Shown here: one piece after another, positions 44,811 to 47,136 of the stretch
Numbering within the stretch: position 1 is the stretch's first letter
How the letters are laid out: every line of letters begins with the position of its first letter
Origin: Alphaproteobacteria bacterium
Lineage (GTDB): Bacteria > Pseudomonadota > Alphaproteobacteria > Micavibrionales > UBA2020
Assembly: GCA_016124645.1 (NCBI GenBank)
Contig: WGNE01000010.1
Location: 1 to 64,000, forward strand
Reading direction: 5' to 3'
Length of the DNA: 64,000 nucleotides
Position numbers and translations under genes: made by a program
The notes under the pieces: generated by a model
What the model was told of the DNA's origin: nothing
The model's input: only the letters and a program-made list of their open reading frames with translations
Database searches by the model: none

Positions 44811-46178
<1,368 letters not shown>

Positions 46179-46194: not shown

Positions 46195-46223
46195 AGAATA
46201 GCCCTTGCGGGGGGCTGTTGCAA
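46195..46223 (-). promoter_or_regulatory. promoter of eno
   Basis: On the minus strand TTGCAA (46218-46223) and TATTCT (46195-46200) are 17 bases apart, about 40 bases before the start codon. Confidence 0.6.
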
Positions 46224-46256: not shown

Positions 46257-46285
46257 TTGCCGGATTTTCGTTTTTATGTTAAGAT
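46257..46285 (+). promoter_or_regulatory. promoter of the unknown gene at 46336
   Basis: TTGCCG (46257-46262) and TAAGAT (46280-46285) are 17 bases apart. The expected start of transcription, about 46292, is just before a CtrA-type box. Confidence 0.6.
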
Positions 46286-46296
46286 ATTCAGGTGGA

Positions 46297-46312
46297 TTAA
46301 CTTCCTGTTAAC
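46297..46312 (+). promoter_or_regulatory. candidate CtrA-binding box
   Basis: TTAA (46297-46300), seven bases, then TTAAC (46308-46312): an exact match to the CtrA consensus TTAA-N7-TTAAC known from Caulobacter. It lies immediately downstream of the putative transcription start of the gene at 46336, a position suited to repression. Confidence 0.5.
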
Positions 46313-46335
46313 CTTCCGAACGGCGGGTCTTTTCA

Positions 46336-47136
46336 ATGTCGCAAAACGGGCAGAGCGCTGGCGCCGATACGGTGAACGTCGATGGCTATTACGTCATCCG
46401 CGGCTATACCGAGGGGCATGATTTCAGCTCCACGCTCGACCTGCCGAAAGAGGACGCCATCAAGGTCATGGAGGAAAGGCATCCTTTCCGCGGCAAGGGG
46501 CCGGCCGATGAAAACGGCAACCGCGACCAGCGCGTCTATTACGAAGACCGCAAGGCGACCGACGAGTGGCTGCGCGAGCAGGGCGGCATCAAGGGCGACC
46601 GCGAGAACCCGGTTTTCTTCACCCTGACGAAGGACCCCGAAAACCTGCTGAAGCTGATGGCGGGCCACGGCAGCTCCTATTCGCATTTCATGGTCGTGCC
46701 GGTCGCGAGTCTGGATGCGAATAAATGGACCTTCACCGTCGATGACAGCATGGGCAATTTCTTTTCCCGCCACGGCGACGACGTGAACGAGAATACCGCC
46801 AACTTCCTGCACGACAGCAACCCGGAACACGGCAAGGTGAAAAACCTCCGGCAGATCGTGGAGGCGATGGAGAAATACCCGAATACCCCGAACGGCATGC
46901 CGCGCGAGTTCGAGGCGCAGTTCTGGGGCCCGAAATTCGACGCCGAGGAACTGGGCGGCAAAATCGTCGAGACCCCGGCCATCCGCGCGCAGGTGCTGCG
47001 GGAGGAAAAAACCGCCGCGGCCGGCGGCAGCAAGTTCATGGGCACGAAACCCGCGGCGCTCGATGCCGGGCAGGCCAATCCCCCCGCCAAAGCCCCGCCT
47101 AAAAACGCCAGCCAGATCAAGCCGGGCGCGGGGTGA
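46336..47136 (+). CDS. conserved-looking cytoplasmic protein of unknown function
   Basis: A 266-residue soluble protein without signal peptide or membrane helix. Residues about 15-200 look folded (VDGYYVIRGYTEGHDF, VFFTLTKDPENLLKLM, SYSHFMVVPVASLD, KWTFTVDDSMGNFFS), followed by a Pro/Ala/Lys-rich tail. It contains no cysteine and no recognisable catalytic motif. The ATG at 46336 follows a good promoter and a CtrA-type box. It lies between eno and an SDR gene, in a block of accessory genes that separates eno from kdsA. I do not recognise it. Confidence 0.7.
   Translation: MSQNGQSAGADTVNVDGYYVIRGYTEGHDFSSTLDLPKEDAIKVMEERHPFRGKGPADENGNRDQRVYYEDRKATDEWLREQGGIKGDRENPVFFTLTKDPENLLKLMAGHGSSYSHFMVVPVASLDANKWTFTVDDSMGNFFSRHGDDVNENTANFLHDSNPEHGKVKNLRQIVEAMEKYPNTPNGMPREFEAQFWGPKFDAEELGGKIVETPAIRAQVLREEKTAAAGGSKFMGTKPAALDAGQANPPAKAPPKNASQIKPGAG

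What the first reader, a model, noticed from the sequence alone, without database searches (positions are those of the whole stretch)
46257..46336. Full CtrA-type box directly downstream of the promoter of an unknown gene
TTAA-N7-TTAAC at 46297-46312 is an exact consensus match, rare in GC-rich DNA, and is placed about five bases after the expected transcription start of a gene I cannot identify. A repressor position suggests that the unknown protein is limited to a cell-cycle stage.
Basis: partly seen in the sequence, partly recalled or inferred. Interest (0 to 1): 0.55.

Follow-up and report, generated by a model that had tools for sequence, protein, structure and literature searches.

The report
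Probable CtrA site before unknown gene
A sequence matching the binding site of CtrA, the cell-cycle regulator of alphaproteobacteria, lies between the predicted promoter and start codon of an uncharacterised gene; it is probably a real repressor-type site of an ordinary kind, although only one of five close relatives of the gene keeps it.

Summary
The box is real: TTAACTTCCTGTTAAC at 46297-46312 is the only exact TTAA-N7-TTAAC in the window (0.06 expected). The genome has 39 matches against 8 for the reversed control pattern, so about one match in five could be chance; 32 of 36 distinct sites are intergenic and one precedes divK-pleD. The box lies 11 bp after a weak sigma70-like promoter and 23 bp before the ATG, a steric-repressor position.

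ctrA is absent from this assembly, but so are fliI, flhA and chpT although flagellar rod genes are present; nearly all relatives have ctrA, and in the two examined it lies beside fliI, so a missing block is the likely cause. Of five stand-alone close orthologues, one (G008) has an exact box in the same layout, at a different place in its genome; four lack it. Two paralogue-like genes have one-mismatch boxes upstream of their -10.

A rival remains: the core is palindromic and a -10-like TATCTT lies 10 bp to its left, so it could activate leftward transcription toward eno; but eno has its own conserved promoter and no eno orthologue in the family has an exact box. Verdict: probable ordinary CtrA regulon member; low interest.

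The parts
46257..46262 (+). candidate -35 element TTGCCG of the 266-residue gene
   Evidence: sequence; 4 of 6 consensus bases, below scan threshold together with the -10
46280..46285 (+). candidate -10 element TAAGAT, 17 bp after the -35
   Evidence: sequence; 4 of 6 consensus bases
46297..46312 (+). CtrA-type box TTAACTTCCTGTTAAC, full TTAA-N7-TTAAC
46281..46286 (-). candidate leftward -10 TATCTT, 10 bp from the palindromic core (rival reading)
46336..47136 (+). ORF of 266 residues, no Pfam family; family nearly restricted to this order
46195..46223 (-). eno promoter TTGCAA-N17-TATTCT, conserved in the family
44811..46154 (-). divergent neighbour, enolase (eno)
   Evidence: 76-89% identical best matches in family genomes

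Best explanation
The box is a genuine CtrA binding site just downstream of the sigma70-type promoter of the 266-residue gene. CtrA~P bound at about +5 to +20 would hinder RNA polymerase, so the gene would be expressed when CtrA is low. Shown: the motif, its genome-wide and intergenic enrichment, the lack of a -10 between box and ATG, and the same layout in the G008 orthologue. Inferred: the promoter, CtrA binding, the direction of regulation, and any cell-cycle timing.
For: 39 exact boxes against 8 reversed-control matches, 32 of 36 intergenic. Similar excess in 16 of 17 other family genomes, 15 of 17 with ctrA. The divK-like gene beside pleD has a box 23 bp before its predicted start. The bases between box and ATG (CTTCCGAACGGCGGGTCTTTTCA) hold no -10. 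The G008 orthologue, 45% identical and at a different place from its eno, has TTGCGC-N17-TATAAT-N14-TTAATAATTTGTTAAC-N16-start. Two other boxes (L021, L030) lie 3-5 bp after good promoter matches, and 9 of 24 gene-directed boxes have a promoter-like match within 25 bp upstream against about 10% in shuffles. In Caulobacter, a full box with its 5' base at -14 is thought to repress ctrA P3 (PMC4287350).
Against: No ctrA in the assembly. Four of five stand-alone close orthologues lack the box (best 3 mismatches in G009, G001, G011; 2 in G033). The family as a whole is not clearly richer in boxes than control genes: 4 of 11 against 12 of 68 with at most one mismatch, and the control set includes the window gene and loci chosen for having boxes. 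The promoter is weak. Full boxes are mostly activators in Caulobacter. Genes usually have promoters, so 9 of 24 is only mild support.
Confidence: 0.5

Rival explanations
1. The box is a CtrA activator site for a leftward promoter toward eno (with or without repression of the rightward gene at the same time). The core TTAA-N7-TTAA is palindromic, and on the minus strand a -10-like TATCTT follows it after 10 bp, giving a start near 46274 and a leader of about 120 bases.
For: TATCTT at 46286-46281 lies 10 bp from the core, next to the 11-bp spacing that is commonest at gene-directed boxes of this genome (L002, L008, L010, L014, L085). Full boxes usually activate from -35 (PMC4287350).
Against: eno has its own promoter TTGCAA-N17-TATTCT, conserved in other family genomes, about 116 bp away. 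None of 14 orthologous eno upstream regions has an exact box; three genomes of one genus have a one-mismatch box at another position. The spacing is 10 and not 11, and no other gene-directed box has 10. The G008 box is beside the orthologue of the 266-residue gene and not beside eno.
Confidence: 0.17
2. The box is a chance match with no function.
For: Eight reversed-control matches against 39 suggest about one in five exact matches is background. The box ranks 32nd of 39 and most close orthologues lack it.
Against: It is intergenic, in the 181-bp gap between two divergent genes, 23 bp before a start codon, with both half-sites TTAAC; an orthologue at a non-syntenic place has an exact box in the same layout.
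Confidence: 0.23
3. The box activates the 266-residue gene from -35, with a start of transcription at or next to the ATG (leaderless message).
For: Most full sites of Caulobacter activate from -35 (PMC4287350); 23 bp from box to start is within the range of other boxes here.
Against: No TANNNT at the needed distance; none in G008 either, by inspection.
Confidence: 0.06

Closest known systems
CtrA full-site regulon of Caulobacter crescentus (PMC4287350) and Hyphomonas neptunium (PMC7200025)
   Same: Same consensus TTAA-N7-TTAA(C), mostly intergenic, present at divK.
   Different: The target is a clade-restricted gene of unknown function; Caulobacter full sites are mostly at -35 and activate, whereas this one lies downstream of the predicted start of transcription.
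CtrA-repressed promoters of Caulobacter ctrA (P1 half-site over -10; P3 full site at -14)
   Same: Site lies where RNA polymerase starts, so repression is expected.
   Different: Here the site is at about +5 to +20, further downstream; no expression data exist.

Membership tests
CtrA binding site / regulon | exact TTAA-N7-TTAA(C) | tested here: met
CtrA binding site / regulon | motif over-represented in the genome and mostly intergenic | tested here: met
   39 against 8 control matches; 32 of 36 distinct sites outside predicted ORFs
CtrA binding site / regulon | ctrA present in the genome | tested here: inconclusive
   Not in the 91%-complete assembly (best-scoring hit 35% and next 39% identical), but a clear ctrA in 50 of 55 genomes searched. 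fliI, chpT and flhA are missing too although flagellar rod-type genes are present, so a gap is likely.
CtrA binding site / regulon | box kept upstream of orthologues | tested here: inconclusive
   exact in G008 only; absent in G009, G001, G011, G033; one mismatch in G000_C49 and G004_C5 homologues, at another position
CtrA binding site / regulon | binding by CtrA and CtrA-dependent expression | not testable with these tools
   needs ChIP, footprinting or a reporter
CtrA-repressed promoter | site overlaps the -10 or the start of transcription | tested here: inconclusive
   box follows a weak candidate promoter by 11 bp; start not mapped
ADP-ribosyltransferase fold (for the 266-residue protein) | significant structural or profile match | tested here: not met
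   model pLDDT 79; no PDB match at E<=0.001; best viral match a DUF3626 protein at E=0.086; no Pfam or PDB sequence match

The most novel reading that the evidence does not exclude
CtrA represses, from a full site just downstream of the start of transcription, a gene of a clade-specific family whose domain also occurs inside a giant multi-domain, effector-like protein of a relative, so that a possible interaction protein is timed to the CtrA-low part of the cell cycle.
Probability: 0.1. Interest if true: 0.4.

Novelty: new member of a known kind. Interest (0 to 1): 0.18.

Why it matters
If true, it adds one clade-specific gene of unknown function to the CtrA regulon of a poorly studied alphaproteobacterial order, and gives a testable case of a full CtrA site acting from downstream of the start of transcription. 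It does not change the picture of how CtrA works.

Tried and rejected
Pfam, PDB sequence and fold searches did not identify the 266-residue protein. An ADP-ribosyltransferase reading, prompted by invariant R22, the T134..D137-S138 stretch and E193-x-Q195, is only a lead: the fold matches are not significant and a distant homologue, G288, seems to lack the first arginine. No homologue was found in phages or viral contigs and no convincing one in plasmids. A strict ctrA-is-absent reading was rejected because fliI, chpT and flhA are missing together with it while flagellar rod genes remain; in G001 and G004 ctrA is divergent from fliI, and chpT is nearby in G004 (names given from sequence by me). 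The empty chpT search has no positive control of its own. Enrichment of a -10 at a fixed distance after boxes was weak. A family-wide box excess among homologues was not significant by eye.

Full report
Observation. The exact box TTAACTTCCTGTTAAC is at 46297-46312 on the + strand and is the only one in the window; shuffles give 0.06 on average. It lies in the 181-bp gap between the divergent genes eno (44811-46154, -) and a 266-residue ORF (46336-47136, +). A candidate promoter TTGCCG-N17-TAAGAT lies upstream, its -10 ending 11 bp before the box; the box ends 23 bp before the ATG. The promoter has only 8 of 12 consensus bases and is not listed by the scan.

Is the box more than chance? The whole assembly (2.85 Mb, 71 contigs) has 39 exact matches on both strands against 8 for the reversed control pattern. 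Of 36 distinct sites, 32 lie outside predicted ORFs. Sixteen of 17 other genomes of the family show an excess of two- to nine-fold over the same control, the exception being G010; many genomes of other families in the order do not. One site precedes a divK-like gene that is followed by a pleD-like one. So CtrA-type sites are real in this family, and about four in five exact matches should be. The window's box is not among the strongest by a leave-one-out matrix (32nd of 39), since its N7 is GC-rich.

Is ctrA there? No orthologue is in the assembly: the best hits to Caulobacter CtrA are 35-39% identical, whereas 50 of 55 genomes searched have one, nearly all at 64-73% identity over most of its length. 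In G001 and G004 ctrA is divergent from fliI, with chemotaxis genes nearby and, in G004, a chpT-like gene. In G000, fliI (only ATP-synthase-like hits), chpT and flhA are missing too, although six flagellar rod-type matches are present. The simplest reading is that one block of the genome is missing from this 91%-complete assembly. This is inference; a complete genome would settle it.

Do orthologues keep the box? Homologues occur in 11 of 142 genomes of the order and in only one genome outside it among about 385 sampled from the class. Of five stand-alone close orthologues (41-50% identity), G008 has an exact box TTAATAATTTGTTAAC, 14 bp after TATAAT and 16 bp before the likely TTG start; the promoter there is TTGCGC-N17-TATAAT. 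G009, G001, G011 and G033 have none within two or three mismatches better than background. A second G000 homologue (contig 49) and a G004 homologue have one-mismatch boxes 78 and 41 bp before the start, upstream of -10-like sequences, an activator-like layout. The whole set (4 of 11 with at most one mismatch) is not clearly different from control genes (12 of 68). G008's copy is on another contig than its eno, so box and gene occur together at two non-syntenic places; that is the best evidence tying the box to this gene.

Direction of action. Between the box and the ATG there is no -10, so activation of the 266-residue gene from -35 is unlikely. Binding just after the promoter would be expected to repress. 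In Caulobacter, full sites are mostly at -35 and activate; repressors are mostly half-sites over -10, but a full site with its 5' base at -14 is thought to repress ctrA P3 (PMC4287350). In this genome, 9 of 24 gene-directed boxes have a promoter-like match within 25 bp upstream against about 10% in shuffles, with the clearest cases at L021 and L030; part of this may only reflect that genes have promoters.

The leftward rival. The core is palindromic, and on the minus strand TATCTT follows after 10 bp. Gene-directed boxes here have a slight excess of -10-like hexamers 11-13 bp after the core, so a leftward CtrA-activated promoter toward eno is possible. Against it, eno has its own promoter, TTGCAA-N17-TATTCT, whose TATTCT is conserved in other family genomes, and no other eno upstream region has an exact box; G001, G007 and G011 have a one-mismatch box at about -93 to -96 from eno.

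The protein. It has no Pfam, PDB or significant fold match. The model is fair (pLDDT 79). In G004 the same domain lies at about residue 1779 of a 2805-residue protein with Sel1 repeats, metallopeptidase-like DUF6782 domains and a weak PARP-like stretch. This hints at an effector-like context but assigns no function.

Verdict. It is an ordinary member of a known kind of regulation.

Noticed in passing
G000:C58:28282-30482 (locus L060 2283-4483): A divK-like response regulator gene followed by a pleD-like one with an exact CtrA box just upstream, a classical type of CtrA target, in an assembly that lacks ctrA.
   Followed up: partly
window 46195-46223 (minus strand): eno promoter TTGCAA-N17-TATTCT; TATTCT with flanking bases is conserved before eno in several family genomes. 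One genus (G001, G007, G011) has a one-mismatch CtrA-like box just upstream of it.
   Followed up: partly
L094 2832-11246 (-), genome G004: A 2805-residue protein with Sel1 repeats, two DUF6782 metallopeptidase matches, a weak PARP-like stretch and, at about residue 1779, the domain of the 266-residue family; looks like a giant multi-domain effector.
   Followed up: partly
L021 and L030 (G000:C51:12860 and C59:5149): Two other CtrA boxes lie 3-5 bp after good sigma70-like promoters, so repressor-type placement may recur in this genome.
   Followed up: no
G010: The one family genome without an excess of CtrA boxes over the reversed control (23 against 26) although it has a ctrA match.
   Followed up: no
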